IMG/VR virus record: IMGVR_UViG_3300025652_000157
Coordinates: 1 to 41,828 of that record
Origin: a virus
Strand: one strand, 5' to 3'
Length of the DNA stretch: 41,828 bases
The notes under the pieces were generated by a model that worked only from the letters and a program-made list of their open reading frames with translations, did no database searches and was not told the DNA's origin. Positions 4,163-39,825 of the stretch are shown piece by piece. The position numbers were made by a program, and so were the translations under genes. How positions within the stretch are numbered: position 1 is the first letter of the stretch; every line of letters starts with the position of its first letter.

Positions 4163-4165
4163 ATT

Positions 4166-11225: not shown

Positions 11226-11250
11226 CAGGCGAACCTATATGTACTAATCT
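11222..11250 (+). promoter_or_regulatory. Candidate promoter before the AlpA-like gene
   Basis: TTGACA (11222-11227, overlapping the helicase stop codon), a 17-bp spacer and TAATCT (11245-11250) repeat the layout seen at 827-855. The segment TGTTAACAAGTAAA follows at once (11250-11263) and recurs exactly at 39745-39758. The 60-bp gap contains nothing else that I recognise. Confidence 0.45.
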
Positions 11251-11285
11251 GTTAACAAGTAAACACACATAGAGGCATAAAGCGT

Positions 11286-11489
11286 ATGAACTTGCTACGA
11301 CCAGAAGAGGTTTCTGAAAAATTGGGCATCACCAAAGCAGCATTACCAGCACTGCGGCGGCGAGAAATAAGCTTCCCCCAACCTATCAAGGTCTCGCAGA
11401 AAGTCCTGCGTTGGGATGAAGCAGATATTAACAGCTGGCTACACGGTAAAAAGGAGAAAACAAATGACGAAAATATCGGAGTTGGATGA
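11286..11489 (+). CDS. AlpA/excisionase-like helix-turn-helix protein
   Basis: This 67-residue protein has the MerR/AlpA-type winged helix-turn-helix pattern: LLRPEEVSEKLGITKAAL, then RRREISFPQPIKVS, then VLRWDEADINSWL. Proteins of this size and motif order act as DNA-bending regulators or excisionases in temperate elements, so it could direct integrase toward excision or regulate the downstream genes. The integrase gene is about 6.3 kb away. The C-terminus overlaps the next gene's start by 26 bp. Confidence 0.85.
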   Translation: MNLLRPEEVSEKLGITKAALPALRRREISFPQPIKVSQKVLRWDEADINSWLHGKKEKTNDENIGVG

Positions 11490-11865
11490 CGGTTCCTGCC
11501 TAAAACTGTTCATCGCCCTGCGAGATCGACGGGCACAACGCAAAGCTGCGTATGACGACGACGACTCAGGGGACAAGGCAAAGCAGAACAAGATCGAGGT
11601 CGAGTTTCTGCGACGGTTCCAAGACCGGGGAATAGACAACGTGTCTTCACGCGACATTGGAACTGCTTACAGGTCAACACGTTCTTCCGCCACTGTGGCA
11701 GATTGGGATGCGTTACTTGGGCACGTAAAGGAGAACGATGCTTGGGAGATGTTGGAACGGCGGGTAAACAAAACTGCTATCCAGCAATTCAAGGAAGCCG
11801 AGGGCGATTTGCCACCGGGTATCAATTGGTCAGAAACTCAAGTTGTCAATTTTAGGCGTAAGTAG
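11464..11865 (+). CDS. Conserved phage protein of the replication region
   Basis: 133 residues. The frame is open back to 11416, but AAAAGGAGAAAA directly precedes the ATG at 11464, which I take as the start. Residues 12-30 (LFIALRDRRAQRKAAYDDD) form a charged helix. The second half (IGTAYRSTRSSATVADWDALL, split here as IGTAYRSTRSS and ATVADWDALL; then WEMLERRVNKTAI and GDLPPGINW) matches a family I recall as common beside phage ssDNA-binding protein genes, with no assigned activity. It is probably an accessory to replication or recombination, judged from context. Confidence 0.82.
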   Translation: MTKISELDDGSCLKLFIALRDRRAQRKAAYDDDDSGDKAKQNKIEVEFLRRFQDRGIDNVSSRDIGTAYRSTRSSATVADWDALLGHVKENDAWEMLERRVNKTAIQQFKEAEGDLPPGINWSETQVVNFRRK

Positions 11866-12375
11866 ATGTTAACGATGGATGATCTGCCAGTAGAAGTCGT
11901 GGTACTACCACGGATTTACAAAGCTAGACACTACCGGTCACTTGAGGGTGAGCAGCTGTGTTCGTCTGATGACGGTGTAGTTCCGTCTGTTAATGCAACC
12001 GAACCCCAAGCGAAGAAGTGTTCTGTATGTACGAACAACACATGGGGTTCCCGAATTACGCCTAATGGCAAACTGGGAAAGGCTTGCGCGGAAAGCATAA
12101 AGCTTACGCTTCGCAAACCAAACTCGGACTATGCGGAAACGTTTCGCGTTCCTGCTGCGAGTGTCCGACCGTTTCGTGCTTACGAAGACCAAGTCATAGC
12201 ACGAGGCGAACAACTAACACACGTCGTAACAAAAATCGACGTTACCCGTGTAGATCAGCGAGCAACGTTGACGTTTAAAGTCACACGATTTTTAGACGAA
12301 GACGAACTCACTTCTATACATACGCCGGAGCAAGCGGATAGCCCGTTTGGTTCCACTGATGGCTACACATATTAA
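11866..12375 (+). CDS. Conserved Cys-containing phage protein, possible zinc binder
   Basis: This 169-residue protein starts directly after the previous stop. A second in-frame ATG three codons in is an alternative start. It has a CSVCTNNTWGSR segment and a downstream GKLGKACAES, a CxxC plus C layout that recurs in phage proteins encoded just upstream of ssDNA-binding proteins. This could be a small zinc site. The rest looks beta-rich and soluble, without a membrane segment. It probably belongs to the replication module, but no enzymatic activity can be named. Confidence 0.78.
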   Translation: MLTMDDLPVEVVVLPRIYKARHYRSLEGEQLCSSDDGVVPSVNATEPQAKKCSVCTNNTWGSRITPNGKLGKACAESIKLTLRKPNSDYAETFRVPAASVRPFRAYEDQVIARGEQLTHVVTKIDVTRVDQRATLTFKVTRFLDEDELTSIHTPEQADSPFGSTDGYTY

Positions 12376-12397
12376 CCAAACCCGAGAGGAATTTACC

Positions 12398-13123
12398 ATG
12401 GCTACAACTAACGCAATGCACATCCTGACTAACGTCGAAGCCCTGTACCCGCGTATCAACACGACGTACAAGTACGACACCAAGGCCAACAACGGCAAAG
12501 GGCAGAGCGTCCCGTGTGACCCGTTGGATGAGGGTGCAAAGTATGAGCTGAACTTTAAGCTCCAAAAAGAGCAGGCTGCCAATCTTTATAAAGACATGTC
12601 AGATGCGTACAACCAGCGTAAAGCTGCCAACTGGCCTGAGATGCCATCTGCGAAGGAGGTTTTCGAGCAGGTCGACGGCGGGTTCGTAGTAAAGTCGAGC
12701 TTGAAAGGTTCGTACAACAATGAGCTAACAAAGAAGCCACGTCAGTTTGACGCTCGAAACCAGCTCTTGCCGGAGGATTTCGAACTAACAACCGGCAGCA
12801 CGATCAACAGCCATCTGGCGTTGGTGCCGTACTCTTCTAACAACGGTAACGGCGTGTCTCTACGACTTCGTGCAGTTCAAGTTGTGAAGTTTAAAGAGCG
12901 AGAGCTGGCAAGCCCGTTTGGCGAAGTTGAAGGCTTTGACAGCACGGCAAACGTAGAAAGCTTCGGTGACGACTTCGATGAAGTACCAGCTCCAGCCCCT
13001 AAGCCCACCCCAGCGCCAGTTGCCGAAGTGGTAGAAGCCGCGCCTAAGAAAGCTAAACCTGCTAAAGTTGACGACTACGACAGCATCGACGCAGCGCTAG
13101 ACAATCTAGACTTCGACGACTAG
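12398..13123 (+). CDS. Single-stranded DNA-binding protein (gp2.5-like)
   Basis: 241 residues. The ATG at 12398 follows GAGAGGAATTTACC and is chosen over an in-frame ATG at 12347 that would overlap the previous gene. A beta-rich core (LYPRINTTYKYD, KYELNFKLQKE, GVSLRLRAVQVVKF) is followed by a Pro/Ala-rich linker (about 195-215) and an acidic C-terminal tail ending in DNLDFDD. An OB-type core with an acidic aromatic-ended tail is the hallmark of T7 gp2.5-like and bacterial SSB proteins, whose tail contacts polymerase and helicase. It would coat ssDNA during replication. A terminator follows. Confidence 0.8.
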   Translation: MATTNAMHILTNVEALYPRINTTYKYDTKANNGKGQSVPCDPLDEGAKYELNFKLQKEQAANLYKDMSDAYNQRKAANWPEMPSAKEVFEQVDGGFVVKSSLKGSYNNELTKKPRQFDARNQLLPEDFELTTGSTINSHLALVPYSSNNGNGVSLRLRAVQVVKFKERELASPFGEVEGFDSTANVESFGDDFDEVPAPAPKPTPAPVAEVVEAAPKKAKPAKVDDYDSIDAALDNLDFDD

Positions 13124-13138
13124 CACCGCTGCTCGCGA

Positions 13139-13162
13139 GTAACGGGGGTTCGCCCCCGTTAC
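13139..13162 (+). terminator. Rho-independent terminator-like hairpin after the SSB gene
   Basis: A perfect 10-bp stem GTAACGGGGG / CCCCCGTTAC closes a TTCG tetraloop, and TATTTGTT follows. The very stable UUCG-capped stem lies 16 bp after the SSB stop and about 35 bp before the next ATG. The U-tract is short, so termination may be partial and allow read-through into the primase-helicase gene. Confidence 0.85.
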
Positions 13163-13196
13163 TATTTGTTCACACGTCAACAGAATAGGTAACGGC

Positions 13197-16142
13197 ATGG
13201 GTACATTAGAGTTCCTAAAGCTAGTGCTTCCGTCACAGGGGCAGACTGTCCTTGGCCTCATGCAGGCGAAAGACGACGGCGGTTCTTGGTTCAAATGGAA
13301 GAACTACCCCAACGCCGAAGAGGCAGCTCAAGCAGCATTATTCTTCGATGGTAGAGGAGAAACAGTCTACTTCGGAGTTAACTCATTCGGCGATTGGTAC
13401 GATGACGAGAAGACCGGCAAGCGCCGCATCCGCACGCAGGAAAACGTGGTGGCATGTCGGTCACTTTTCGACGACTTCGATGTCGACGTATCCAAGAAGG
13501 ACGCGTACGACACAAAGGAGGAAGCGCTTGAAGGCGTGGTTCTCTTAGCTAAATCATTACGGTTATCCCCAACGATCGTTAACTCCGGCGGCGGGTACCA
13601 CAGCTACATCCACCTCAACGAAGACATAACGACCGAGGTGTGGGAAGAACTGTCCGCTATGAAGCGTGACGTCACAACGCACTTACAGATTAAAGCAGAC
13701 CGCGCCGTGGATAGTGACACGTCGCGTATTCTACGGCCCATAGGCGTTCACAACCGCAAGTACGAACCAGCGCGCCCCGTAGAGCTACTCAGGGAAGGTA
13801 AGGTCTACACAGTAGACAAAGTGCGATCAGCGTTATCGGATTTCATAACCAACAACAGCGTGCAACCTGCGCCGACCACTCGAAAGGCTGCGAATGTTAG
13901 CCCGTTTGCTGATACGCCGGTCGACTACCCTGACAGCGACGCGGAAGTAGTAGCCAAGAACTGTGCTGCTGTTCGTCAGTTTAAAGACAGTGGTGGCAAC
14001 ATACCGGAACCTCATTGGCACCGTGCCATCGGGGTCATCAAGTTTTGTAAGGATGGCGCAGATAAGATCCATGAGTGGAGCCAAGGGTACGAAGGCTACT
14101 CCATGGCGGAGACGCAAGAGAAGATCGACGAGTGGACTGTTGGTCCAACATCGTGCGTAGAAATGGATCGCCACGCCGGGTGCATGGCAGACTGTCCTTT
14201 TGCGGCGACTTGCAGGTTTCCAGTCACACTAGGCTTTACTGAAAAAGCAGAGTCTGTCGCTGAAGCCAGCATAGACGCTAACGCCGTCGCCACGAAAGCA
14301 GCCGCAGCAGCGGGACAGGTTATCGAAGGGCAGCACATCCCACACTGGCCCGCGGCAGGTTACCGTTGGAACGGTCAGACGTTATCGAAAGCCTACACAG
14401 ACGAAGAGGGCGTCGTCCACTGGACACCGTTCTGCCGCTCGTTCGTATACCCCATTAATCGCATCCAAGACAGCGAAGGAGTATGGAACATACATTGGAA
14501 AGCACTAGAGCAAAACGGTCGTTGGCGCGAATTCTTTATGCCTACGACAGAGTTAGCATCCCCAGACATGATGGCGAAGACGCTTGCATCGTACGAGGTG
14601 TTTCTCACACGCTCCAAAAACGCGAGAAATAATATGGTTGATTTTGCAGTAGAGTTAATCGACACGCTACAGAAATGGCGGGTCGAGACTAAGACGGTTG
14701 CCCAGTTCGGGTGGAACAAGGAGCGTACAGGCTTTGTAATAGGCACCAAGGAGCTGAGCCTCGACGGTGAGCACGATGTTCTCTGCGACCCAAGTATGCC
14801 ACAAGATATAGCCCTCGACTTTGGGCGCAGTGGTACGCTTGAAGAGTGGACCTCAAACATAGACAAGCTGTACAACCGCCCCGGCGCGGAACCATTCCAG
14901 TTCGCTCTCTGCCACTCTATGGGCTCAGCCCTTGTTGAGTTGATGGGGTCGAGTAACTGGCACGGCCTGCCTTTGGCGTTCACAGGTCACGGTGGCACAG
15001 GTAAGTCTACTGCCGCTAAGATCGCGTGCGGCTTCTATGGCAACCCACGGCACATGGAACGTCAGACTGGTGAGCAAGGATCTACGCTCAACGCAGCGAT
15101 CAAACGGATTGCGATCATGGGCTCTGTCCCAATGGTCCTCGACGAGTTCTCAGGACGATCTCCAGACGAGCTAACTCGTACCGGTTATGCGCTGGCTAAC
15201 GGTCGGGACAAGGAACGACTGGGCACCACGGGCAAGTTCAGTACCGTCGGCGGGCAGTGGTTTAAGAACAGCTTCATCACATCGAACGACTCGATCATGG
15301 AAAGCATTAGTAAGCTGCCAGCAGGTTATAGAGTTGAAGCTACGCAGCTACGTTTCTTTGAGGTGTCATTACCAGCGGACTACCGGAACAAGGTTTTCCC
15401 TGACATCACGCAGGAGTTCGTCGAGAACCACATGGACCACGTTTACGGTGAGGCTTGCCGCCCGTACATCCGGTTCATCATCGAGAACCAAGACTGGGTA
15501 CGTCGCCAGATTGTCTCGGCTCGTAGCAAGTTCAACCCGAAGTCGGAAGAAGACAACAAGGAACGGTTCTACCGAGACACCATTGTGACTGCGCTGGTGG
15601 CAGGTAAGATCGCACACAAACTGAATTTGGTTCAGTTTGACATGGACGCCATGAAAAAGTGGGCGCTAGGTCAGGTCCAGACCATGCGTGAGAGCCGTCG
15701 GGAAAACAACCTCGACATTAGTGAACAGCTTGCTGCGTTCATTGCTACTCTGCCGGGTCGTTTGATTATCACTAAGCACTTTGGTGATAACCGCTCCAAG
15801 GTCAAAGAACATCCGATGGAAACTATGCGCAACCCCGCAGTGGGCCGTGTATGTACCGAGGACAAGAAGGTCTACGTCACAGTCAAAGCAATCGCTGACT
15901 GGTGCAAGGAGCACGGCGTGGCACCTGCTGCCGTCAAGGAAGAGCTAGACCGTGCAGGTTACTTAGTGTTCCAAGCGGATGGCACGTTTAGCCCCCGCAT
16001 TACTTTGGGTTCTGGCACTACTGTCCCGAGTGGCCAGTCTCGTTGCTACGAACTTAACTTCACGAAGTTCTTCGACAGTAAAGCGCTGTCAATTGTGAAA
16101 ACTGAAGAAGGGGTTGCTACTGAATCCCAAGCGGGCGGATAA
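13197..16142 (+). CDS. Primase-helicase fusion (AEP-like primase plus ATPase)
   Basis: This 981-residue protein has an N-terminal part like archaeo-eukaryotic primases: DDFDVD (92-97) as the metal-binding acidic motif, VNSGGGYHSYIHL, and RILRPIGVHNRKYE as the third motif. A Cys-rich stretch (CVEMDRHAGCMADCPFAATC, about 319-338) could bind a metal. The C-terminal half is a DUF927-like helicase/ATPase with Walker A GHGGTGKS (597-604), Walker B MVLDEF (D649, E650) and a SNDSIMESISKLP sensor-like segment. It would unwind and prime DNA at the phage fork, pairing with the family A polymerase and the SSB. The start lies just beyond the hairpin at 13139-13162. Confidence 0.9.
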   Translation: MGTLEFLKLVLPSQGQTVLGLMQAKDDGGSWFKWKNYPNAEEAAQAALFFDGRGETVYFGVNSFGDWYDDEKTGKRRIRTQENVVACRSLFDDFDVDVSKKDAYDTKEEALEGVVLLAKSLRLSPTIVNSGGGYHSYIHLNEDITTEVWEELSAMKRDVTTHLQIKADRAVDSDTSRILRPIGVHNRKYEPARPVELLREGKVYTVDKVRSALSDFITNNSVQPAPTTRKAANVSPFADTPVDYPDSDAEVVAKNCAAVRQFKDSGGNIPEPHWHRAIGVIKFCKDGADKIHEWSQGYEGYSMAETQEKIDEWTVGPTSCVEMDRHAGCMADCPFAATCRFPVTLGFTEKAESVAEASIDANAVATKAAAAAGQVIEGQHIPHWPAAGYRWNGQTLSKAYTDEEGVVHWTPFCRSFVYPINRIQDSEGVWNIHWKALEQNGRWREFFMPTTELASPDMMAKTLASYEVFLTRSKNARNNMVDFAVELIDTLQKWRVETKTVAQFGWNKERTGFVIGTKELSLDGEHDVLCDPSMPQDIALDFGRSGTLEEWTSNIDKLYNRPGAEPFQFALCHSMGSALVELMGSSNWHGLPLAFTGHGGTGKSTAAKIACGFYGNPRHMERQTGEQGSTLNAAIKRIAIMGSVPMVLDEFSGRSPDELTRTGYALANGRDKERLGTTGKFSTVGGQWFKNSFITSNDSIMESISKLPAGYRVEATQLRFFEVSLPADYRNKVFPDITQEFVENHMDHVYGEACRPYIRFIIENQDWVRRQIVSARSKFNPKSEEDNKERFYRDTIVTALVAGKIAHKLNLVQFDMDAMKKWALGQVQTMRESRRENNLDISEQLAAFIATLPGRLIITKHFGDNRSKVKEHPMETMRNPAVGRVCTEDKKVYVTVKAIADWCKEHGVAPAAVKEELDRAGYLVFQADGTFSPRITLGSGTTVPSGQSRCYELNFTKFFDSKALSIVKTEEGVATESQAGG

Positions 16143-19994: not shown

Positions 19995-22900
19995 TTACTC
20001 GAACCGGCTGGCAGCACCTCGCTCCCGCCGCCGCTGAGCGAAAGGCGCTTTGATTAGATCGGATATGGACTGGCGTCGCAGCGCTTTGCTGTCATTCCCG
20101 AAAGACCCCCGAAGTCTGTCCTTGTGACCCTGCAAGGTTCGCCACTCGCGTTTAAGTCTCAGCTTAGCCCTAGGGTCGCCAGACTGGTGAGCGTCTATGT
20201 ACTCACGTCGTATACGGCCCGTCTCAGTGCTAAAGTGCTGGCTGATTTCGTACTGCTGGCTCCGAGTGTACTTTATGTTTTCGACAAGGCTGACAGGAAT
20301 GCCCAGCGCGTTAACAAGCAGTGGAACCATACCTGACGCTCTCATTTCTTCTGGGGTAACCACGATGTCGCCGTTCTTAAACGACATGCCTTCGGTAGCA
20401 AGTCTGTAGGACTCCAGTGGCTTGCGTAAACCTTTTGGCACAAAGTGCTCGATGGCTTTTGACACATCCCCATTCGCTGCGTACTCGGCGGAGCGCAAGA
20501 AGTTCAGCATCGTGGTACCAGAGGGGCCAGCAGCTAGGTTAAAGACAATATCTTTAAGGGCATCTTCAGTTGGCTCGATTTCCGTGTACGGGAAAGGTTT
20601 GAAGATGTTGTCTTGGCTAAGTTTGGTAGACATGTCTATGCCGATCGCACTGAACCCACCTCGAGCAAGAACCTCGCCGAATTTCCCCGGAACGTTCTCG
20701 CGGATAAAACGCTCAAGATCTTGGGGCTCGTCTTCCTCAGGAGAGACCAGATTCGCCAGCCAAAAGTACGTCGCCGAAATACTCGATACCAACGGGATTC
20801 CCGTTAGACCCCCCATTATACCAGCGTGGGTGAGCATGTACCCTAGCGTTCGCTTACCCGCAGCCCTTACCTCGGGAGACTCACCTGTAAACGCCATCTG
20901 AAAACTCTTGACGTAGTTCGCCGCCATTAAGAACTGGTACTTTCGGTACTGAACTGTCAGCTTAGGAAGCTTCTTGAGCAGCAGTGGAGCGTCAAGCGCA
21001 CCAAAGTTACCCTGCGTGTCTTCCACGATCGCGGTCGCGTACTCCACTGGCGTCATGTCGAACCGTGCAGGGACTGAAGGTTTTGCCAGTGCCATGTCGT
21101 ACGCTGCAACGGCTGAGGATATACGGTTTTGAGCCTCTACGAAACGGGCTGTTTGGTACAACTTGTGGGTAATCTTGCCAGCAACATCTCCCGCGGCGTT
21201 AAGGCCCTCATAGCCTGTGTTGAACCGCTCGAACGAGGCCAAGTCTTCTTCCATACCTACGTCTAGAAGGCCCCGCAGTTGGAGTTCTTTCAGCAGCGCT
21301 CGGTACTTTTCAGGCGTTTTTTCGACGTCGATCTCAGTCTCGAGATCCTTCGTCATCCTAATGGCCCCATTTGCCACTGTGTAGCCGTCTAGCAAGCTTT
21401 TCCAAGCGCCAGAGTAGCTGTTAAAGTGCCCGGCAAGGAACGGGACCGTAACCGCGGCGGGCTGGGTAGCGTTCGTTACGTGGTAGCCAATGCTCGATGT
21501 CAGCATCCAGACAGAGTTCCCAGCCGCTATACGGTTTTGTATGCTCTGGAATGTCGACTGCTTGTAGACCAGCGAGTCTTTGTAGTGAGCAGCCATCATG
21601 TTGTACATGGGCATGAGTTCTGTTTCGTTTTTGCGAGCTGCCTTGAGGGTCGCCGCCAGAGCCATGTTGACTTCAGCACCGTGCTCCATAGTGGAGATCA
21701 TCGCCGATTCAGCGCTTGCGTGAGACAGGAACGAACGGATCATGTTCTTTTCGTAACCCGCGCGGTTCTTACGCTTGGCCCCGGACATTCGAGCGTCGCG
21801 CTGATCTAGCGAGTCAAAGTACATGTCGCGCACTAAGTCGGAAAAAGCTGCCTTAGACGCTGGGTCTATCTGAGATTTGTCCGCGGCGCTCAGAGCCCCA
21901 AGCACTTTCTGGAACACTTCAGCGTTTGGTGTGCGGTCTTCCATTACGTCGTTAGCACGCTGTGACGCGCTTGCGTACGCGTAGGTCTTAGCGTTCTCGT
22001 TCCTGAACTTCTTCGCCAATCCCATGGTGTCAAAGAAACTGACCACGTAGTTATCTCCGTCGGACTTTAACTCTTCCACCGTCTTGCGTGTCGCTGGGCT
22101 GGATTCAGCCGTGTCGAGCGCCTCTGCGTCAAGTAACGCTTGGGACTTCAGTACCGTAGCATACTTACCAAAACGCTTCAGTGGGGCATAGGGACCGTCA
22201 AGGGCCTCAGCACTAAAGAAGGTCTTTGGAATACCCATCTCTTTGGCGATTGCCAGCTTGCGCAGACGCATGTTTTCACCGTGCTGGAACATGTCCCGCA
22301 CCAACTTCTGCTCAACAGGTGCTAACCGGTTGTAGGCTCGCTCCATGATAGCGTCTGTTTTAATAACGCGCGGGTCTCCGTTCTTGTCAGTAAACTGAGG
22401 GTTGTAGCCCCACTTCTGGAAGTAGGTGGACTTACTGACAAAGTCGTTGACGACTACTAAGCGCTCACCCGTTAGGTTTCGAGCGTCGATCGCTATGGCC
22501 TCTACCTGACGACGGATGTCTTGGCGTGTCTTGTCTGACTCTTTAACAGCTTGGTACCACACCCCAGCTTCGGGCAACCGTCCTTTAATCCTACGGATAA
22601 ACTGGTGAACGAACTCTAGCGAACGAGCGGCTTTTGAAAAAAGCTCAGTAGAGTCATTCACAAACTGCTCAGCTTTAGGTCCAAACACCTCGCCTGCCTT
22701 TTGGGCGTAGCGCCCGGTGTTTGCGCGCCCCTCAGGTGTTGGCTCCATAGACCCCTTCATTGCGTCAGACTGGAGGTCGACGTTATCGTTAAGCGGGTCT
22801 CGCAGGGCAGCGCCTTTGACTTGGCTCAAGTAATTCACAAACTCGGATGACGGCAGGTACTTCTTGTTTGCCACCTTGGCGTAAAAGCTTTTCATGGCTT

Positions 22901-25900
22901 TGCCGAGGCGAGAGAAGAACTTCTCGACAACCGTTAGTGGAACCTTTTGCGTTGTTGCCCAACGTGATACTTGGTCGGCGTACCATTCGCTGAACGACTT
23001 CCAGTAGGGCTGCGCTTGGTGCGCCATAAGATCTTCACCGACCTTAGTGGTTTTACCCGTCTTCCGAGCGCGTAGAGCTTCAACCAAAGCTTTAGCGGTT
23101 CCGCCTTTCTGTTCTGCCAGCCAAGCCTTGTGCGCGTCGTAAAGTTCCCCCTTCAGGCTTGCTGGGGCAGAGTCAAACGCTTCCTTCTGGTGTATATGAC
23201 CCATCTCATGGGCGAGAGTCTCCAGTGTGGCAGCTTTGTCAGGTTGGTCGTCAAAGATAATGTAGTGAGTGCCGTCAGCCATACGACGCGTAGATCCACG
23301 CTCATTGCTGTCTAGCGTGCCAGAGCCAACGGCCCGTAGTGGACCTGTAAAGTTAAGCTTGTTGGCCTTCGCGTCGCTAAGGGTTGTGATGTACACCTCG
23401 GACTCAAGCCCGAGCAACTCTTTCCAACCGCGCGCGATACCCTGCAATTCGGGAGACGTATTCTCGGAGAATGCTAAGCCGTTCTCATAAGTGACAAACG
23501 GTGTTTCTGCGTGAACTCTCTGCGCTTCCGTTTCCACGGCGGTCTTAGCGGCTACAAGCTCCGCCTTTTGGCTAGGGGTAAAGACGTTGCCTGTGTAGCT
23601 CTCAACGTCCACTTTGGTGTACGTATCGTTTTTAGCGGCGGCGTATACTGGAGCCCCCGAGATGTTGCTGTACCCGCGAACAAGAGACAGCTCACCATTC
23701 TGGTAAACGACTTCACCACCCAACCGCTCTGCTATGGCGTCCGCGCTGTTAACTTGAGCGACTGACCCTTCTCGCTTCTTAGGTGCCTTGGCTTCCACAG
23801 TGGGAGTAGGCTCTACTTCCGCGGGGGTTGTTCTTTCGATTTTTAGTTGCTCGCTTGGCTCCCAGAAGATTTCTACGTTATGGGGCGCTTTACCTGTAAA
23901 CGTACCGCCGACGTGGCGGTATCCTTCGAACCCTGCGTTCTCTAGCGTTCTACGGAAGCTCTCCATACTATCTTGTATAGCATCTGCTGTTTCCATGTCG
24001 TCGGTCATAGTGCTGCGCAGGTAGTCTAAAGCGTCGCGCACTGTCGACGTTGCAGGTAAATCTTGCGCTTCATCCGCTTTAAATACTCTTGACTGACTGA
24101 ACCACCCGAGTACTTGGGGGGTCAAGGGCTGTTCTAAGTCAAACAGGTTAGCGTCTTTTAGCTTTGTAACTTTGTACACTACCGGCGATTTAGGCCCTTT
24201 TCCTCTGCCCGCGTTTGAGTACCCTGTAGCTATGTCAGCAGCGTCCGTTGTGTAAAACCCTTGCCCGTATATGTTCACCGGTCCGTAAGAGCTGTCATCT
24301 AGGGAAGTGACTTCTCTGGATGACCCATGGTACTGAGTACCTTGGCCGCGTGTGTCTCCAGCAGGTGTCTTGGCCTCCACAGTGGGAGTAGGCTTAGTGT
24401 CAACCACTGGAGCTGCCACTGTGGGTTTAACCACCCGGCGCTTCTTCTTCGTTGTAACTGCTACGCTGGCAGAGCGCTCCTTAAACTGTTCAGCGGTTAA
24501 CTGCGTGGGGTTCTCTTCCCCGTCAGCACGCTCTTCGCTTTGCTCAGGTCTAGCCCCTTCTTCTCGTACTCCTCCACTAACAGGAGCAGTCTCTTCCGGG
24601 TCTGCTTGGCCTGCAATTTGTCCGACTGGGTCGGGGCTTTGACGTTTGGCATTTTGTGTATCCTTTATAAAGTCGGCACGGATAAAGTCGTACTCTTGAC
24701 CTAAGGCGTCTAGGTCAAGGTCTCCTGAGTTATAGTCTGTGGTGAACGCGAACCACTCAAGGCGAGAGCCCGCATCCATAGACTCGAAGGGGACACGGTC
24801 CGCTTCATTTTCTACATCAGACTCAAACCCGTTGTTCCATAGGTCGACCGCAACTTTGTACTTACGGTCTTTCTTCATAGCCGCATCAAACTCAGCCCGA
24901 ATAGCAGCTCTCTGCGCCGCGGTCTGGGCAGTGGGAGCTGTCTCTTGTTTCTGCGTCCATGCTTTTGTTTCGTCGTCTACACCTTCGTAGGCCGAAGTTT
25001 TCGAGGTACTCATCTCACCGTCAGGCGCTAGGCTGTTCATATCTAGCGTAGCGTCATCGCCGTCACCTTCGCTGTCGTCCTCAGTCCCGTCATACTCTAT
25101 CGCATTTTGGATGCGCGTGTCAGCCAACTGCTGCTTAATAGCAGTAGGATCGCCCACCCCCTTGGTGTCAACAGACCCGTAGAACTTGGCGATCTTCTCC
25201 TTTATTCGTTTGATGTTCGTACTAGCGTGGTTTTCTTTGATACCAGTTAGCGCCGCAATTTTCTTACTTTCCCACGTGGTGGTCCTACCGTCGGGGGCCG
25301 TAGACGACACCGAGGCTTGGTCGTTGTCTCTGAATGCCTTGAGGATAACGTCGTAGACTTTCTCTTCGTTCCTAGACAGTCCTAGATCCGTAGCTAGGGG
25401 AAGACCCGGCACAGCAGGATCTACCGCGGTCGGCTCGGGCTCAACCACTGGGGCTGGTTGCGTTGGTGTGGCAGCCTGCTCGGTCTCAACCACGTCTGTC
25501 AGTACAGGAACATTGTCATCAACCACGTCTGTCAGTACAGGAACATTGTCATCAACCGCGGGGGCTGTGGAAGTCTCGGCCACAGCAGCTTCAACGCCTG
25601 CTTGGAACTCAAACAATGTGCCGTTGTATAACACAGCAGCCAACTCAGGCCGTTCGTTACGCCAGTTCGCTCCAAGTTGTTCGTTGGCGAAGGCTTCGGC
25701 TTGCCCGGTTAACCCTTTAGGGCCTTCAAGCTCCGCTTTGTCAGCTACGGTCTTGTCAAGCATTGTCTCGAAACGCGACTTCTTCCCTTTGCCACGGGAG
25801 GAGGTGCCTTTACCATCCGAAATCAGCGATGACAGCTCTGGGTTATCTATTTCCCACGTGGGGCCAAGTGCCGCTTCGGCTTTCGCGATGAGCTGCGCTT

Positions 25901-27506
25901 TCTTAGTAAGTGGCTTAGGTTTAGCAGCTACAACAGGGGCAGTTACAGCAGGGGCGGTCTCAGCTACAGGGGCAGGGTTTGCTGCGGCCCGCATGGTACC
26001 TATAACGCCAAATGCTTCAGGGTCTTGAGCTGCCAGTGACGCCAACGACTCATCATCCAGCGTCATGACATCAGGGTTAGCTGCAACAACCTGCTTCGCT
26101 CGGCCTACGATCTCGACGTGGGCATCCAAAGCGGTAAGGTAGTCTTGGTCAAGCTGGGTCGTATCGGCAGACTTCTCGTAACCTTTTTGGAACTTCACTG
26201 CTTCCGCGGCTACCTCGGTGGGGTCAAAGATGTTTTTCTCGTTGACGTGTTGCTCGAAAGCTTGCCCGAGTTCTGTTTCCGTGTTGCGAATGTCTTGCGC
26301 TGCGGCTGCTGAAGCCTCGGCCTTGCGCGCTTTAATGAACTCTGCACGTGGTACAAAAGTTTGTGCTGCGTCCCGACGAAGACGAGCCTGCTCTGTAATT
26401 TCAGCTTGCTGAGCTAGACCTACCTGCGTAGCCTCGGCTTCCTCTTGGGCGACCAGTGCGGCTTCTTCTTCCGCCAGTTGCGTAGCGGTCTCTGTGTCGA
26501 TCTGTGTTCCTTGGCGATTGGCGGGGCTTAGCGCTCCACCAACGGAGCCCATACCAGCGCCACCAAAAGCACCAGCCATCATGGACGTAGGGTCCATAAA
26601 GTTAGCTTCGCCAGCCGTGGCACCAGCACCCATGTCTTCCAGTCCGCTCTGAACACCTTCGGTTAGAGCCTCGACACCTGCGCCGGTTGTTCCACGCGTG
26701 GCAGCCTGTCGTGCCTTCCCGCCCTTGGCGAGCCCTTCCATTAGGTTTTTAGCAGGGCCGAACCGCGCTAAACCTAACGTGGCAATATCAGCTACCGACT
26801 CCAGTGTACCCGACAGAGCGCCGTAACCAACAACACGCCCTAGGTTTACATCCTCAAGCGACCCGCCTTCTGCAATAGCCCGCTCACCAGCCTGACCGTA
26901 TATGCCACCCGTGGCTTGACCGACGCCTTGGGCTAAAATACCCGTGGTAGAGCCGATAGCCGCGCTCGTTACGCGATCACCTAGTGCATCACCAACTAGG
27001 TCTTTGGCTTTGTCTTTGACAACGGCCTCAACGCCTTCGCTAATAGCCTTCTTGGCGATAGTAGAACCGATACCACCCGACAGAAGAGCCGCCGCCGCGT
27101 CTGGTACAGCACGCCCTAAATAGTACGCGCCCGCGTCCACAAAGTTACTGACCGAGCTTGTTGCACCGTCCCACGTGTAGGAATCACGAAACTCGGAGTC
27201 GACCTCCGCCATGTTGTCTTGGTAGCCTTTAAATCCCCAGTCGCGCAGACCCTCGCCTACACCAATGGTACGCTCAAGCCCGGCACCTGCTAAACCAACA
27301 AGCCCGTATGCGGTTCCCTGCATGGAGTCGATACCACCCGCAACACCGGCCACGAAATCAGAACCGTCGTCTTTAGATGTTGTGCTGTTGGTTCGACCAC
27401 CTCTGGCCTCATCTAGGATAGCCTGCTGCGCAGGCGTGAACTGGCTTACTCCTTCCGACCGAGCACGTTTGGATTCCTCTAGGATCGCTTTCTGGGCTGC
27501 GTTCAT
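19995..27506 (-). CDS. Giant polyvalent internal virion protein (ART-like, zincin-like, HTH regions)
   Basis: 2503 residues; the last and longest gene of the late operon, overlapping the previous one by ATGA. The N-terminus has two copies of a Q-x-AIL-(D/E)-E motif. Residues about 50-330 are Gly/Ala-rich and helical and may insert in membrane. About 708-775 looks like a helix-turn-helix. From Y1059 (YHGSS ... GQGFYTTD ... VEIFWEP) it resembles the ADP-ribosyltransferase-like domain of polyvalent proteins. HEMGH (H1433-H1437) with a later SEWYADQ gives a zincin motif. The remaining C-terminal 1000 residues are helical and end in a basic tail (RRRERG). Such proteins are packaged in the phage head and ejected with DNA to modify or protect against host factors; that role is inferred from the family. 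Confidence 0.88.
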   Translation of the reverse strand: MNAAQKAILEESKRARSEGVSQFTPAQQAILDEARGGRTNSTTSKDDGSDFVAGVAGGIDSMQGTAYGLVGLAGAGLERTIGVGEGLRDWGFKGYQDNMAEVDSEFRDSYTWDGATSSVSNFVDAGAYYLGRAVPDAAAALLSGGIGSTIAKKAISEGVEAVVKDKAKDLVGDALGDRVTSAAIGSTTGILAQGVGQATGGIYGQAGERAIAEGGSLEDVNLGRVVGYGALSGTLESVADIATLGLARFGPAKNLMEGLAKGGKARQAATRGTTGAGVEALTEGVQSGLEDMGAGATAGEANFMDPTSMMAGAFGGAGMGSVGGALSPANRQGTQIDTETATQLAEEEAALVAQEEAEATQVGLAQQAEITEQARLRRDAAQTFVPRAEFIKARKAEASAAAAQDIRNTETELGQAFEQHVNEKNIFDPTEVAAEAVKFQKGYEKSADTTQLDQDYLTALDAHVEIVGRAKQVVAANPDVMTLDDESLASLAAQDPEAFGVIGTMRAAANPAPVAETAPAVTAPVVAAKPKPLTKKAQLIAKAEAALGPTWEIDNPELSSLISDGKGTSSRGKGKKSRFETMLDKTVADKAELEGPKGLTGQAEAFANEQLGANWRNERPELAAVLYNGTLFEFQAGVEAAVAETSTAPAVDDNVPVLTDVVDDNVPVLTDVVETEQAATPTQPAPVVEPEPTAVDPAVPGLPLATDLGLSRNEEKVYDVILKAFRDNDQASVSSTAPDGRTTTWESKKIAALTGIKENHASTNIKRIKEKIAKFYGSVDTKGVGDPTAIKQQLADTRIQNAIEYDGTEDDSEGDGDDATLDMNSLAPDGEMSTSKTSAYEGVDDETKAWTQKQETAPTAQTAAQRAAIRAEFDAAMKKDRKYKVAVDLWNNGFESDVENEADRVPFESMDAGSRLEWFAFTTDYNSGDLDLDALGQEYDFIRADFIKDTQNAKRQSPDPVGQIAGQADPEETAPVSGGVREEGARPEQSEERADGEENPTQLTAEQFKERSASVAVTTKKKRRVVKPTVAAPVVDTKPTPTVEAKTPAGDTRGQGTQYHGSSREVTSLDDSSYGPVNIYGQGFYTTDAADIATGYSNAGRGKGPKSPVVYKVTKLKDANLFDLEQPLTPQVLGWFSQSRVFKADEAQDLPATSTVRDALDYLRSTMTDDMETADAIQDSMESFRRTLENAGFEGYRHVGGTFTGKAPHNVEIFWEPSEQLKIERTTPAEVEPTPTVEAKAPKKREGSVAQVNSADAIAERLGGEVVYQNGELSLVRGYSNISGAPVYAAAKNDTYTKVDVESYTGNVFTPSQKAELVAAKTAVETEAQRVHAETPFVTYENGLAFSENTSPELQGIARGWKELLGLESEVYITTLSDAKANKLNFTGPLRAVGSGTLDSNERGSTRRMADGTHYIIFDDQPDKAATLETLAHEMGHIHQKEAFDSAPASLKGELYDAHKAWLAEQKGGTAKALVEALRARKTGKTTKVGEDLMAHQAQPYWKSFSEWYADQVSRWATTQKVPLTVVEKFFSRLGKAMKSFYAKVANKKYLPSSEFVNYLSQVKGAALRDPLNDNVDLQSDAMKGSMEPTPEGRANTGRYAQKAGEVFGPKAEQFVNDSTELFSKAARSLEFVHQFIRRIKGRLPEAGVWYQAVKESDKTRQDIRRQVEAIAIDARNLTGERLVVVNDFVSKSTYFQKWGYNPQFTDKNGDPRVIKTDAIMERAYNRLAPVEQKLVRDMFQHGENMRLRKLAIAKEMGIPKTFFSAEALDGPYAPLKRFGKYATVLKSQALLDAEALDTAESSPATRKTVEELKSDGDNYVVSFFDTMGLAKKFRNENAKTYAYASASQRANDVMEDRTPNAEVFQKVLGALSAADKSQIDPASKAAFSDLVRDMYFDSLDQRDARMSGAKRKNRAGYEKNMIRSFLSHASAESAMISTMEHGAEVNMALAATLKAARKNETELMPMYNMMAAHYKDSLVYKQSTFQSIQNRIAAGNSVWMLTSSIGYHVTNATQPAAVTVPFLAGHFNSYSGAWKSLLDGYTVANGAIRMTKDLETEIDVEKTPEKYRALLKELQLRGLLDVGMEEDLASFERFNTGYEGLNAAGDVAGKITHKLYQTARFVEAQNRISSAVAAYDMALAKPSVPARFDMTPVEYATAIVEDTQGNFGALDAPLLLKKLPKLTVQYRKYQFLMAANYVKSFQMAFTGESPEVRAAGKRTLGYMLTHAGIMGGLTGIPLVSSISATYFWLANLVSPEEDEPQDLERFIRENVPGKFGEVLARGGFSAIGIDMSTKLSQDNIFKPFPYTEIEPTEDALKDIVFNLAAGPSGTTMLNFLRSAEYAANGDVSKAIEHFVPKGLRKPLESYRLATEGMSFKNGDIVVTPEEMRASGMVPLLVNALGIPVSLVENIKYTRSQQYEISQHFSTETGRIRREYIDAHQSGDPRAKLRLKREWRTLQGHKDRLRGSFGNDSKALRRQSISDLIKAPFAQRRRERGAASRFE
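25486..25551. repeat. 33-bp perfect tandem duplication inside the polyvalent gene
   Basis: Two identical 33-bp units (25486-25518 and 25519-25551) lie head to tail, in frame, duplicating the 11 residues DDNVPVLTDVV in a Pro/Thr/Val-rich linker. The perfect identity implies a recent duplication. Confidence 0.95.
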
Positions 27507-28885
27507 TGGCCTTGATCCCCTTCGGCTATGAATCTTTGTTTCATTTCGGCACTCAGATTAGCCCAGTCGCTCCCGGAAACGCCTTGAGGTGGAGCGTTTT
27601 TCATACCAACGGACTGCATGTAGCTACCAATCATGTCTAGCTGCTCGTCGGGTTCCATACCCATAAAGTAGTCTACCTGATGGAGCTTGATTAAACCGTC
27701 CATTTTGGTCTGTTCGGCAGCTGCTACTCCGCCATCTGCGATTTTGGCTAGGATTGCATCCGTTTGAGCCTCTAACAGAGCCGTTGCTGCGAAGGTTTTG
27801 CCCTGTTGTTGGAGTTCTGCGAACGTCTGTTGGTCGATTAAGCTCGTCGCTGAAATAATTCGATCTGTTTCCGCTACTGCCTGCGTAACCTGCTCTCCGA
27901 CAAGACTGACTCTCGCGTTGGACAAATTTGTATCTGCTTGCGTTTTGCCTGTAACTGCCTCCGTGTTATCTACATCCGCTACTTTCTTTGCAGCATCGAG
28001 GTTATCTACTACGGCGCTCATTAGGTTAGCGGGGTCTTTAACCTGCTGCATTAGGTAGTTCATGACCTGCTGCTTGCCCGTTTCGCCATCCGCGCTGTAC
28101 ATGACCTGCCTAGACTGGCCTTCGCCTTCGCCTGTAATCAGATAGGCCACGGTGGTGCCGTCTTCTTCTACGATGTCCAGCTGAGCGCCATCGGTGATTT
28201 CGTTGTTGTAGAACGCCTCAACCGCCTCAACCCCCTTTGGGATAGCTTTGCCCAACTTCGTGATGAGCCGGGCCGACTCCAAGCCGAGTTTTTCAGCCCC
28301 AAATTCGCCTAGCGCCCTGAGTCCCTCCGTTTGTTGAGCTATCGGCAGGTTCGAGTTTTGAAATTGGTCGACCATCCATGCGGTTTGCGCTTCGTCGCTC
28401 TCAAACTCTATAGCCCCGGCTCGCGCAAAAATGTCGGTCATCGTTGCGTCGTTATTAAGTTGGTTTTGCGCGGCTTGGTTAGACAGCCCCAGCCCCGTAG
28501 TCTGCGCGTTACTAGCAGCTGCGGCAGCGTTAGCCTGCCCTATTTGAGCCTGACGCAACTGAACACCTGCCGCAGATTCGTCTATCCGAGATTGTTCTGT
28601 TTCTTTCTTGACCCTAGTATCGCTCATCAAACCCTTGAGCGTTACGTTATCGGTACGCAGCTGTCTCGCGCCTGTGGTATCGCCGTACTTCTCCATAACG
28701 TTGGCTATGTCAGTCTGTTGCGCGTCAATCAGTGCGTCGCCCTCCAGCCGGGTCGTACCGTCTTCGCCGAAGTAGTCTTTCTTCTTAATCTTGCCCGTCT
28801 CGAACTTTGTAAACGCGCTGTTCAACGTTGAGTTCACGGAATTAAAGTTGTCAGAAAAATCTGCCCATGCTGATTTGCGAGCCAT
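27503..28885 (-). CDS. Internal virion / structural protein, helical
   Basis: 460 residues. The start shares a base with the upstream stop (TAATG) and the stop overlaps the giant gene's start. It is rich in Ala, Gln, Thr and Asp with long helices. The region about 95-145 (RIDESAAGVQLRQAQIGQANAAA region) and the region 290-400 look like coiled coils. It has no enzyme motif or signal peptide. By position just before the polyvalent protein, it is likely another internal head or ejection protein, comparable in place to the T7 gp14-gp16 set. Direct homology is not evident to me. Confidence 0.75.
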   Translation of the reverse strand: MARKSAWADFSDNFNSVNSTLNSAFTKFETGKIKKKDYFGEDGTTRLEGDALIDAQQTDIANVMEKYGDTTGARQLRTDNVTLKGLMSDTRVKKETEQSRIDESAAGVQLRQAQIGQANAAAAASNAQTTGLGLSNQAAQNQLNNDATMTDIFARAGAIEFESDEAQTAWMVDQFQNSNLPIAQQTEGLRALGEFGAEKLGLESARLITKLGKAIPKGVEAVEAFYNNEITDGAQLDIVEEDGTTVAYLITGEGEGQSRQVMYSADGETGKQQVMNYLMQQVKDPANLMSAVVDNLDAAKKVADVDNTEAVTGKTQADTNLSNARVSLVGEQVTQAVAETDRIISATSLIDQQTFAELQQQGKTFAATALLEAQTDAILAKIADGGVAAAEQTKMDGLIKLHQVDYFMGMEPDEQLDMIGSYMQSVGMKNAPPQGVSGSDWANLSAEMKQRFIAEGDQGQ

Positions 28886-29913
28886 TAGTTGACCTCCTTA
28901 AATTCAATGCCGAGAGCACCATAATTAACAGCCAAAATGCCACTGCTGGTTTCGATAACTGCGTCTGGGTAGCTCAGCTGTACTTCTTGAGCCATTACGC
29001 CACGGTAGCGTTTAGTGTGGTCACCGAAGCCTTCTTTGTAGTTAAACTCATAAAGGGTCAGGGCGGTGCGTTGGTCGACGCCAACCTCTTCGACGTTCTC
29101 TTTAATGCGGCTGTCTGAAAACGCTGTGTACAAAGACGCTACGCCACCAAGCGCTCCGCCGATGTTACCCATCGTGCTGTCTTGTGTGTTGATGTAAGCA
29201 GATGTCTGGTTGTTCAGTGCGTTGCCCAAGCCTGACAACTGCATGTTTTGACCGTTTCCGATCGTGCCTGCGCCCTGCGCCATACCCGACATGTAGTTCT
29301 GGCCCGCAGACTGAGCGTTAAGACCCGCTTGAGAACCTGCGTTACTGGCACCGCCGTAAGCTGCGGTAGATGCGCCTGCAAGACCTCGACCCAGACCCGC
29401 TGCGTCAAGTTTACGTGCATAACCCATCTGTTGAGCTTGGCTTCGAGCGCCAGTCATAGCCTGCGCCCGTGTAGCGGCTTGCTGCATTTGGGTCGCGGCA
29501 GTCATGCCAGCGAAACGACCCGAGTTTGGGTTCACACCCATGGAGGCCATAGCGCGTTGGTTCTGTTGTTGTGCCACACCAAAGGCTCTTCCCGCGTCTG
29601 CGGCTGCGTTATCCGACGCCTCTTGGCGATACGCTTCAGAGTTAAAGCGCTGGGCATCCTCTACGAGGCCCCGCTCCAACGGACGATAGGTGTCGACTTG
29701 GTAATCGTAGTAATCCTTTGCCTGCGCCATCTGCTGAGACTGTGCGGCCATCTGCTGGTTCGCGATGCCTTCAAGCATTGGGCGGGCCGTGTCGTACTGC
29801 TCACGGGCAAACGCTAATTGCTCCCGCCCCAGTTCGGCCTGAACTTCTGCCGCTTTATTACTGGCATTTTCCAAAGGAGTGTAATCTGGAGCTTCAGTAC
29901 TTTTCTTACCCAT
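28885..29913 (-). CDS. Virion protein with C-terminal S74-type chaperone/peptidase domain
   Basis: 342 residues. I start at the ATG at 29913 (8-bp overlap with the GNAT gene), giving MGKKSTEAPDY, rather than the longer frame back to 29952. The N-terminal 200 residues are Ala/Gln-rich helices like internal core or ejection proteins, followed by a Gly/Ala/Asn-rich region. From S266 the sequence SDSRIKENVEEVG starts a peptidase S74 domain, the intramolecular chaperone that trimerises fibres and cuts itself off at the Ser (S266, with D267 and K271). An S74 domain on an internal-protein-like front is unusual; it may be a fibre with helical stalk. Confidence 0.83.
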   Translation of the reverse strand: MGKKSTEAPDYTPLENASNKAAEVQAELGREQLAFAREQYDTARPMLEGIANQQMAAQSQQMAQAKDYYDYQVDTYRPLERGLVEDAQRFNSEAYRQEASDNAAADAGRAFGVAQQQNQRAMASMGVNPNSGRFAGMTAATQMQQAATRAQAMTGARSQAQQMGYARKLDAAGLGRGLAGASTAAYGGASNAGSQAGLNAQSAGQNYMSGMAQGAGTIGNGQNMQLSGLGNALNNQTSAYINTQDSTMGNIGGALGGVASLYTAFSDSRIKENVEEVGVDQRTALTLYEFNYKEGFGDHTKRYRGVMAQEVQLSYPDAVIETSSGILAVNYGALGIEFKEVN

Positions 29914-30334
29914 AATTTTTTCCTTTGCGGTAGTTCTCTGGCCACAGAACAAGGACGATCATGTCCTGCCCAGCTGACCCAGCCTGTTTCATAGCGCCTT
30001 CTTCTAGGAAGCCGATACGCTTAACGAATTTAAGTGATTTGGAGTTATCAGACTCGACGAGCACAGTAAGCCGTCTCAGCCCGCACGCCTCAAACGCATA
30101 CGTAAACGCATGGTCGAGTAGCTCCAAAAACAGTTTGTTGGGTTTGCTGAGCGCGATGTGTCCAGTGGCGTTACACTCGTTGAAGTTGTTAAAAACAACA
30201 CCACTCACAATTTGACCGTCGACTTCAGCGCCCATGGCGTAAAACGAACCCCACGTACAGGATTGAGTTACTTTGTCGGCTACCCACGCCCCAACTCGCT
30301 CTTTGTCATCAAAGATCAAACCCGTGTTGGACAT
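29906..30334 (-). CDS. GNAT-family acetyltransferase-like protein
   Basis: 142 residues. CAGGAG lies before the ATG. The GNAT pattern is seen: beta strands VSGVVFNNF and GHIALS, then a helix, LLDHAFTYAFEACGLRRLTVLVESDN, split as LLDHAFTYAFEACG and LRRLTVLVESDN, followed by NSKSLKFVKRIGFLEEG, the conserved end of the fold (N-x-x-S-x-x-x-x-x-x-x-x-G-F). T7 gp13 is also GNAT-like and is encoded among the structural genes, so a virion assembly role without acetylation is possible. The acetyl-CoA loop (Q/R-x-x-G-x-G/A) is not clear. Confidence 0.75.
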   Translation of the reverse strand: MSNTGLIFDDKERVGAWVADKVTQSCTWGSFYAMGAEVDGQIVSGVVFNNFNECNATGHIALSKPNKLFLELLDHAFTYAFEACGLRRLTVLVESDNSKSLKFVKRIGFLEEGAMKQAGSAGQDMIVLVLWPENYRKGKNYG

Positions 30335-39693: not shown

Positions 39694-39813
39694 CTACCTA
39701 ATTCCGTTCGTTGTTTGGCATGGTTCTCACTGTACCTGTCAACGTGTTAACAAGTAAAGTGGGGGTTCAGGTTACCACGTAAAAGTGGCCATTACTTCTT
39801 CGCAAAGTGGCCA
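39694..39813. promoter_or_regulatory. Intergenic region in the lysis cassette with shared motifs
   Basis: This 120-bp gap has no gene. On the plus strand it holds TGTACCTGT (39731-39739), which also occurs at 7212-7220 and, inverted, at 18861-18869. It also holds TGTTAACAAGTAAA (39745-39758), identical to 11250-11263. On the minus strand TTGACA (39742-39737) is promoter-like, but no matching -10 is visible at 17 bp. Confidence 0.4.
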
Positions 39814-39825
39814 TTACTTCTTCGC
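39782..39825. repeat. 22-bp perfect tandem duplication at the end of the holin-like gene
   Basis: Two identical 22-bp units (39782-39803, 39804-39825) are head to tail. The right copy contains the last codons and stop of the 53-residue gene at 39814-39975. The left copy repeats them outside the gene. Perfect identity implies a recent event. Confidence 0.95.

What the first reader, a model, noticed from the sequence alone, without database searches (positions are those of the whole stretch)
19995..27506. 2503-residue polyvalent protein combining ADP-ribosyltransferase-like, HTH and zincin regions
One late gene occupies 18% of the window. It carries an ART-like segment from Y1059, an HTH-like segment near 708-775, HEMGH at 1433-1437 and membrane-like Gly/Ala-rich N-terminal helices. 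Polyvalent phage proteins are thought to be injected with DNA and to disarm host defences. The particular domain order here may define a new combination, and more than 1000 C-terminal residues have no recognised fold.
Basis: partly seen in the sequence, partly recalled or inferred. Interest (0 to 1): 0.58.

Follow-up and report, generated by a model that had tools for sequence, protein, structure and literature searches.

The report
Phage ejection protein with optional enzyme
A giant protein that this virus of bacteria probably carries in its particle and pushes into the cell holds a swappable ADP-ribosyltransferase-like module, which a near-identical relative lacks, next to a metalloprotease-like module.

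Summary
The 2503-residue gene is real, on the minus strand (27506 to 19995). ART and zincin regions are at the named positions. The ART model (residues 1050-1222, pLDDT 86.7) has the ART fold; its one strong structural match is a domain of the solved pre-ejectosome of cyanophage A4 (Z 12.7). HEMGH (1433-1437) and Glu1507 are invariant in 22 aligned sequences; the zincin fold match is moderate. The HTH is weak. The C-terminal region is not unrecognised: residues 1810-2451 are a PLxRFG domain (E 6.5e-55). The gene lies in a virion operon, and ART relatives sit in the gp16 slot of T7-like gene orders, so I read it as a podoviral ejectosome-type polyvalent protein. The least expected result: the ART is an optional cassette. 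Conspecific contig L003 (about 98% identical) lacks it, as do three homologues at about 63% identity; it lies between 32-nt direct repeats, and its nearest kin are in otherwise unrelated gp16-like proteins. His1060 and Tyr1085 are invariant, but the third acidic residue is not conserved; His1209 and Val1211 are. ART activity and target are inferred, not shown. New variant of a known kind.

The parts
19995..27506 (-). 2503-aa ejectosome-type polyvalent protein gene
   Evidence: homologues over nearly the full length at 63% (best segment) in L005 and L006
26487..27359 (-). Gly/Ala-rich helical N-terminal module (residues 50-340); absent from homologue L048, which starts with other sequence
25486..25551 (-). 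perfect 33-nt tandem duplication in a linker, in frame (DDNVPVLTDVV twice)
25182..25385 (-). HTH-like region, residues 708-775 (weak)
   Evidence: conserved in L005, L006, L048
24363..24394 (-). upstream copy of the 32-nt direct repeat flanking the ART cassette
23841..24359 (-). ART domain, residues 1050-1222 (H1060, Y1085, Y1096, Y1111, D1161, H1209, V1211 invariant in 25 rows)
23781..23812 (-). downstream copy of the 32-nt direct repeat
22692..23801 (-). zincin-like metallopeptidase region, residues 1236-1605
23196..23210 (-). HEMGH motif, residues 1433-1437
22986..22988 (-). Glu1507, candidate third zinc ligand in FxEW
20154..22079 (-). PLxRFG domain (NF032893), residues 1810-2451; overlaps PHROG 10089 at 1760-2449
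27503..28885 (-). 460-aa gene just upstream (position of T7 gp15)
   Evidence: no clear family
28885..29952 (-). 355-aa virion/ejection-type protein with Peptidase_S74 C-terminus
   Evidence: PHROG 8003 E 3.9e-49, PHROG 4287 E 4.7e-11; PF13884
29906..30334 (-). 142-aa GNAT acetyltransferase (position of T7 gp13)
   Evidence: PHROG 4470 and 4177; PF00583
35343..37970 (-). internal virion protein
   Evidence: PHROG 511, E 9e-150

Best explanation
The gene encodes a podoviral ejectosome-type polyvalent protein: the counterpart, by gene position, of T7 gp16 and, by one domain, of the cyanophage A4 pre-ejectosome protein. It is made late, packed in the head, and ejected with or ahead of the DNA. 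The Gly/Ala-rich N-terminus and the PLxRFG C-terminal part are the chassis (packaging and passage through the envelope, inferred). The zincin-like domain cuts the chain or another protein during or after entry (inferred). The ART domain is an exchangeable effector cassette in a linker, gained or lost by recombination between short direct repeats; inside the cell it would use NAD+ to modify a host macromolecule in favour of infection (inferred). Shown here: the predicted fold of the ART, its invariant H-Y pair, the zincin motif, the virion-gene context and the presence/absence of the cassette. Not shown: catalysis, target, ejection, proteolysis.
For: ART fold: model pLDDT 86.7, pTM 0.83; the only PDB hit with E below 0.001 of 206 is 9k3a_B, cyanophage A4 pre-ejectosome, E 1.7e-4, and VIA-align gives Z 12.7, rmsd 2.9 over 149 of 173 residues, against 6.5 for the next rows, toxin-antitoxin structures NatRT and MbcT-MbcA. 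Gene order: operon with internal virion protein, ejection-type protein and GNAT upstream. In L012 the ART ORF follows a gene matching T7_gp14 (PF24072, E 4e-18), a gp13-like gene and a gp15-sized gene, and in 12 of 12 ART loci examined for order the ART ORF directly follows a 388-949 aa ORF (12 of the 34 loci outside the window species were examined). Stand-alone ART genes sit among terminase, portal and scaffold genes in L024, L028, L031 and directly after a terminase-like gene in L017 (read from its sequence). Cassette: L003 lacks it at 97.7% nt identity downstream and 94.3% upstream, while L001 and L002 (over 99%) carry it; homologues L005, L006 and L048 lack it; direct repeat 30/32 against 22-25 in 20 codon shuffles of the gene and at most 22 in 500 shuffles of the two linkers.
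Against: No sequence-level relation between this ART, zincin or C-terminus and the A4 proteins could be shown with my profiles. The third acidic ART position is not conserved (E1212 is E in 6 of 25 rows; the Pro-anchored alternative position is V in 25 of 25), so the domain could be inactive or act by another chemistry. The neighbours in the window itself do not match T7 gp14 or gp15. No terminase, portal or capsid gene was identified in the 18 ORFs scanned against PHROGs, so the record may be a fragment. Only one conspecific contig lacks the ART, against three (window included) that have it.
Confidence: 0.6

Rival explanations
1. The ART-fold domain is a structural or regulatory part of the ejection complex that no longer transfers ADP-ribose.
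For: The best structural match is a domain ordered within a virion assembly; the third acidic position is not conserved; near relatives do without the domain.
Against: H1060, Y1085, Y1096, Y1111, D1161 and H1209 are invariant in 25 of 25 rows although identity to the window is only about 31-51%, and stand-alone gene versions exist; a purely structural piece would hardly be optional.
Confidence: 0.22
2. The protein is injected as proposed, but the ART is an anti-defence factor: it modifies or blocks a host immune protein or consumes a signal, rather than acting on host transcription or metabolism. (A special case of the best explanation, differing in the target.)
For: Polyvalent proteins are proposed to counter restriction and CRISPR (PMC5512222 abstract); one VIA row is an anti-CRISPR structure, 6kyf, Z 6.0; presence/absence within a species fits a trait needed only in some hosts.
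Against: Z 6.0 is no better than many ART toxins in the same list; no target is known. PADLOC was not run.
Confidence: 0.3
3. The protein is not a virion protein but an early or lysogeny protein whose position near integrase and metallophosphoesterase genes is the relevant context.
For: Metallophosphoesterase and integrase genes lie directly downstream on the same strand.
Against: Upstream genes on the same strand are virion and lysis genes; ART relatives sit in gp16-like slots or among head genes.
Confidence: 0.08

Closest known systems
Polyvalent proteins (Iyer et al. 2017, PMC5512222; passages and section 8 read)
   Same: Multidomain phage protein with ART and zincin-like metallopeptidase, virion-gene context, phage-only LPD-type domains; ART-zincin fusion already described.
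   Different: The ART family described there has H-Y-D; this one has H-Y with no conserved acid and an invariant His1209. Cassette recombination was raised there as a possibility for kinase loci.
Cyanophage A4 pre-ejectosome protein (PDB 9k3a chain B; by its numbering probably A4L_27 of NC_024358; its paper is not held, seen only as a reference-list entry)
   Same: ART-fold domain, Z 12.7, in a large protein of the virion ejection complex.
   Different: No HExxH in A4L_27 and no match of my zincin or C-terminal profiles; its ART is near the C-terminus, not in the middle.
T7 gp16 internal virion protein (position only)
   Same: Same slot after gp13/gp14/gp15-like genes in ART relatives such as L012.
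   Different: No sequence or fold match to T7 gp16 was found; the slot argument is inference.
T4 Alt (virion-packaged ART; PMC5512222 passages)
   Same: Packaged ART delivered with DNA, as a model of action.
   Different: Alt is R-S-E; this one is H-Y. Not a member.
P1 DarB / PHROG 10089 'DarB-like antirestriction'
   Same: Matches the last part (3946-4583 of 4647) of that profile.
   Different: No methylase or helicase match in this protein, so the name should not be carried over.

Membership tests
Polyvalent protein | two or more unrelated catalytic or binding domains in one phage polypeptide | tested here: met
   ART plus zincin motif and moderate fold match
Polyvalent protein | linked to late/virion genes | tested here: met
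Polyvalent protein | injected into the host with DNA | not testable with these tools
   inferred from position and the A4 match
ART superfamily, H-Y-[EDQ] clade | ART fold | tested here: met
   predicted model and its matches
ART superfamily, H-Y-[EDQ] clade | His in strand 1 and Tyr in strand 2 | tested here: met
   H1060 and Y1085, 25 of 25 rows; the NIYGQGFY stretch and GQGTQYHG were among six search patterns, so this invariance is partly by selection
ART superfamily, H-Y-[EDQ] clade | conserved acid or Gln in strand 5 | tested here: not met
   1212: R 11, E 6, N 5, K 3; 1211: V 25; 1216: N 8, D 5, T 3, Y 3, E 2, F 2, H 1, S 1. So it is not filed in H-Y-[EDQ]; it is ART-fold, H-Y type, third position divergent
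Pfam ART-PolyVal PF18760 / DUF3990 PF13151 | score above the curated cut-off | tested here: not met
   20.5 against 31.2 and 25.6 against 32.2 bits
Zincin-like metallopeptidase | HExxH plus downstream Glu ligand | tested here: met
   HEMGH and E1507 invariant in 22 rows; the two fetching patterns covered both motifs, each locus needing only one
Zincin-like metallopeptidase | zincin fold | tested here: inconclusive
   lethal factor Z 8.2, rmsd 5.1 over 163; PPEP-3 Z 7.3, rmsd 4.0 over 145; best Foldseek E 0.41 for any chain
PLxRFG domain NF032893 | score above the curated cut-off | tested here: met
   186.8 against 100 bits
T7 gp16 ejectosome protein | sequence or fold homology to T7 gp16 | tested here: inconclusive
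   none seen; the long model is poor (pTM 0.36)
DarB antirestriction protein | adenine methylase and SF2 helicase | tested here: not met
   no such match in P0001

The most novel reading that the evidence does not exclude
Podoviral ejectosome proteins are a chassis for exchangeable effector cassettes: one divergent ART subfamily (H-Y with an invariant second His and no conserved acid) moves between unrelated gp16-like proteins, stand-alone head genes and prophage polyvalent proteins, by recombination at short repeats in linkers, so that members of one phage species differ in which enzyme they inject.
Probability: 0.45. Interest if true: 0.75.

Novelty: new variant of a known kind. Interest (0 to 1): 0.52.

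Why it matters
Polyvalent proteins were defined by computation and their delivery is mostly inferred. A domain of this kind now has its strongest structural match inside a solved virion ejection complex, and a natural pair of near-identical phages with and without it would let the role of an injected ART be tested directly: same phage, same chassis, one cassette different. It also suggests that the polymorphic-toxin-like cassette swapping proposed for such proteins can be seen at species level.

Tried and rejected
R-S-E (Alt-type) ART: not supported; the motif is H-Y. 'DarB-like antirestriction' as a function: rejected, only the shared C-terminal region matches. C-terminus without any recognised domain: rejected. 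One joint alignment of ART and zincin relatives for folding misaligned ART rows onto the zincin and was not used; ART (A6) and zincin plus C-terminus (A7) were folded apart. The long model has mean pLDDT 64.7 and pTM 0.36, so its whole-model PDB search (best E 0.41) says little; a helical match to phage E1004 core protein (9vvp_W, Z 7.5, rmsd 5.5 over 208) is below what helical models reach by chance and is not used; no T7 gp16 structure was among the rows listed. PDB sequence searches gave nothing convincing. My ART, zincin and C-terminal profiles do not find the A4 proteins. ART in INPHARED phages by tblastn: no match; genome contigs: 1 relative among 24 pattern matches (Delftia tsuruhatensis). 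An exact 26-base scan of the flank found 3 contigs, two with and one without the ART. L003 as an assembly collapse of the repeat: unlikely, because its junction differs from both window copies (extra letters), but reads were not seen. Tree of the ART: window groups with L010, L012, L013 at 91/90, not a starred branch; the wider placement is weak. HTH left unsettled. PADLOC, metagenome contigs and further genome-search runs were not used. Papers: no text on an ART in an ejectosome or on swapping of this cassette was found in searches (listings read; four papers opened in part); the A4 structure paper is not held.

Full report
What is there. The frame 27506 to 19995, minus strand, encodes 2503 residues. 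The window is the whole of one virus record. On its strand, upstream lie an internal virion protein (PHROG 511), a tail fibre, a GNAT protein, a 355-aa protein matching virion/ejection families and a 460-aa protein; downstream lie a metallophosphoesterase and an integrase. The plus-strand half holds replication genes.

Architecture. Residues 50-340 are Gly/Ala-rich (35% G+A) with at most modest hydropathy. Residues 708-775 have weak HTH hits of different models in the window and in homologues. Residues 1050-1222 are the ART domain. Residues 1236-1605 hold the zincin region with HEMGH and Glu1507. Residues 1810-2451 are the PLxRFG domain NF032893, above its cut-off.

ART test. Pfam's DUF3990 matched 10 of 10 ART segments scanned and ART-PolyVal 6 of 10 at E up to 1, all below the curated cut-offs: a divergent subfamily. 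The model made from 23 sequences has pLDDT 86.7 and pTM 0.83. In the PDB the only match with E below 0.001 (of 206) is chain B of the cyanophage A4 pre-ejectosome; VIA-align gives Z 12.7, rmsd 2.9 over 149 residues, chain residues 1420-1597; the next rows are toxin-antitoxin and toxin ARTs at 6.5 and below. In viral predicted structures the top hit is an ART-PolyVal-like protein, and Phormidium phage Pf-WMP3 gp26 is among the 38 matches with E below 0.001. The A4 record shows LYHGT and GSGTYFS in A4L_27 in that residue range, which is the basis for equating it with chain B (inference).

Active site. In 25 rows (window plus 24 relatives; 8 identical segments, the 2 truncated loci L042 and L043 and the near-identical L001, L002 and L009 dropped) H1060, Y1085, Y1096, Y1111, D1161, H1209 and V1211 are invariant. 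The six search patterns included GQGTQYHG, NIYGQGFY and HNVEIFWE, so conservation of H1060, Y1085, H1209 and V1211 is partly by selection; Y1096, Y1111 and D1161 are in no pattern that matched widely (YKVTKLKD begins at Y1111). Anchored by eye on the following Pro, canonical ART-PolyVal domains in L023 and L030 place the usual Glu at V1211. If the register is one residue off, it is E1212, which is E in 6 of 25 only. Either way no acid is conserved, so the family is not filed as H-Y-[EDQ]; whether H1209 replaces it is a hypothesis.

Zincin test. 22 rows aligned; both histidines, the Glu of HExxH and Glu1507 invariant. The model of 1310-2503 is good only in part (mean 64.7; first 210 residues mostly 66-92 per block of ten). 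VIA-align lists lethal factor (Z 8.2), Certhrax (8.1) and PPEP-3 (7.3) over this part, in line with the published link of polyvalent zincins to lethal factor (PMC5512222 passages), but the level is moderate.

The ART is optional. The homologues L005, L006 (58-59% overall) and L048 have the HTH-like region, zincin and C-terminus but no ART. Within the species, L001 and L002 (over 99% nt identity) carry it; L003, 94.3% identical over 754 bases upstream and 97.7% over 6191 bases downstream, lacks it. The cassette lies between two copies of a 32-nt repeat (30 of 32 identical) that encode PTPTVEAK; L003 has one. Codon-shuffled genes gave best matches of 22-25 of 32 (20 shuffles), and 500 shuffles of the two linkers reached at most 22. 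L003's junction contains extra letters absent from both copies, which speaks against a simple assembly collapse. Between L003 and the window the linker region 790-1039 has dN/dS 0.74, the zincin 0.10 and the C-terminus 0.31. The N-terminal module is also exchanged in L048.

Where the cassette comes from. One scan found 36 loci with relatives, 34 beyond the window species. Most are in ORFs of about 1400-3400 aa (some run off their contig); six loci have it as a 260-292 aa gene. Own profiles found the ART together with this zincin and this C-terminus only in the window species. In the tree the window row pairs with L010, L012 and L013 (support 91/90, not starred), which lack the zincin and C-terminal modules. 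In L012 the genes before the ART ORF match phrog_457 tail protein, a gp13-like family (PF11090 below its cut-off, PHROG 308) and T7_gp14 (PF24072, E 4e-18, above cut-off); in 12 of 12 loci examined for order the ART ORF directly follows a 388-949 aa ORF. Stand-alone ART genes lie between lysozyme and terminase (L028, L031; by PHROGs for L028, by sequence for L031), directly after a terminase-like gene (L017, by sequence), or between a terminase-like end and a portal gene (L024), and in L024 the next gene carries a HELEH motif (that protein has no PHROG or Pfam match). A Delftia genome carries a 2912-aa relative with ART and a HEALGHH motif.

How it most likely works. Shown: predicted fold, conserved residues, gene context, presence/absence. 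Inferred: packaging in the head, ejection with DNA, processing by the zincin, NAD+-dependent modification of a host target. T4 Alt is the published model of a virion ART (PMC5512222 passages; PMC9503650 passages); the present domain is of another class. The published reading of zincins in such proteins is mainly autoprocessing (PMC5512222 section 8).

Known and new. Polyvalent proteins with ART and zincin are known (PMC5512222). New here, as far as searches show: the divergent third active-site position, gp16-like ejection proteins as carriers of this ART, and the same-species presence/absence with flanking repeats. The library lacks most subscription papers, among them the A4 structure paper, which may already discuss the ART fold in that complex. 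Papers seen: PMC5512222 passages and section 8; PMC9503650, PMC12810830 and PMC10386132 passages; the rest as search listings.

Noticed in passing
L024:298-1131 and 1133-2014: A stand-alone ART gene directly followed by a 293-aa gene with a HELEH motif, between terminase and portal genes: ART and a zincin-like protein as separate neighbours.
   Followed up: partly
L048:2554-3663: Homologue with a quite different first 340 residues: the N-terminal module is also exchanged.
   Followed up: partly
L007:3-4118: The zincin is followed by another ART-like stretch (LYHRSS..GVGVYFS) and a different C-terminus: a different cassette after the zincin.
   Followed up: no
window 25486-25551: Perfect 33-nt in-frame tandem duplication in a linker of the same gene.
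   Followed up: no
window 28885-29952: Ejection-type protein ends in a Peptidase_S74 intramolecular chaperone domain, usual in tail spikes (recalled); odd for an ejection protein.
   Followed up: no
L006:8995-9801 and 9953-15934: The giant gene is split into two ORFs (268 and 1993 aa) in this contig.
   Followed up: no
window 39782-39825: Perfect 22-nt tandem duplication in a stretch without a listed long ORF.
   Followed up: no
L030 about residue 2397 and L023 about residue 1780 of the ART ORF: Second, canonical ART-PolyVal-like domains in the same proteins.
   Followed up: partly
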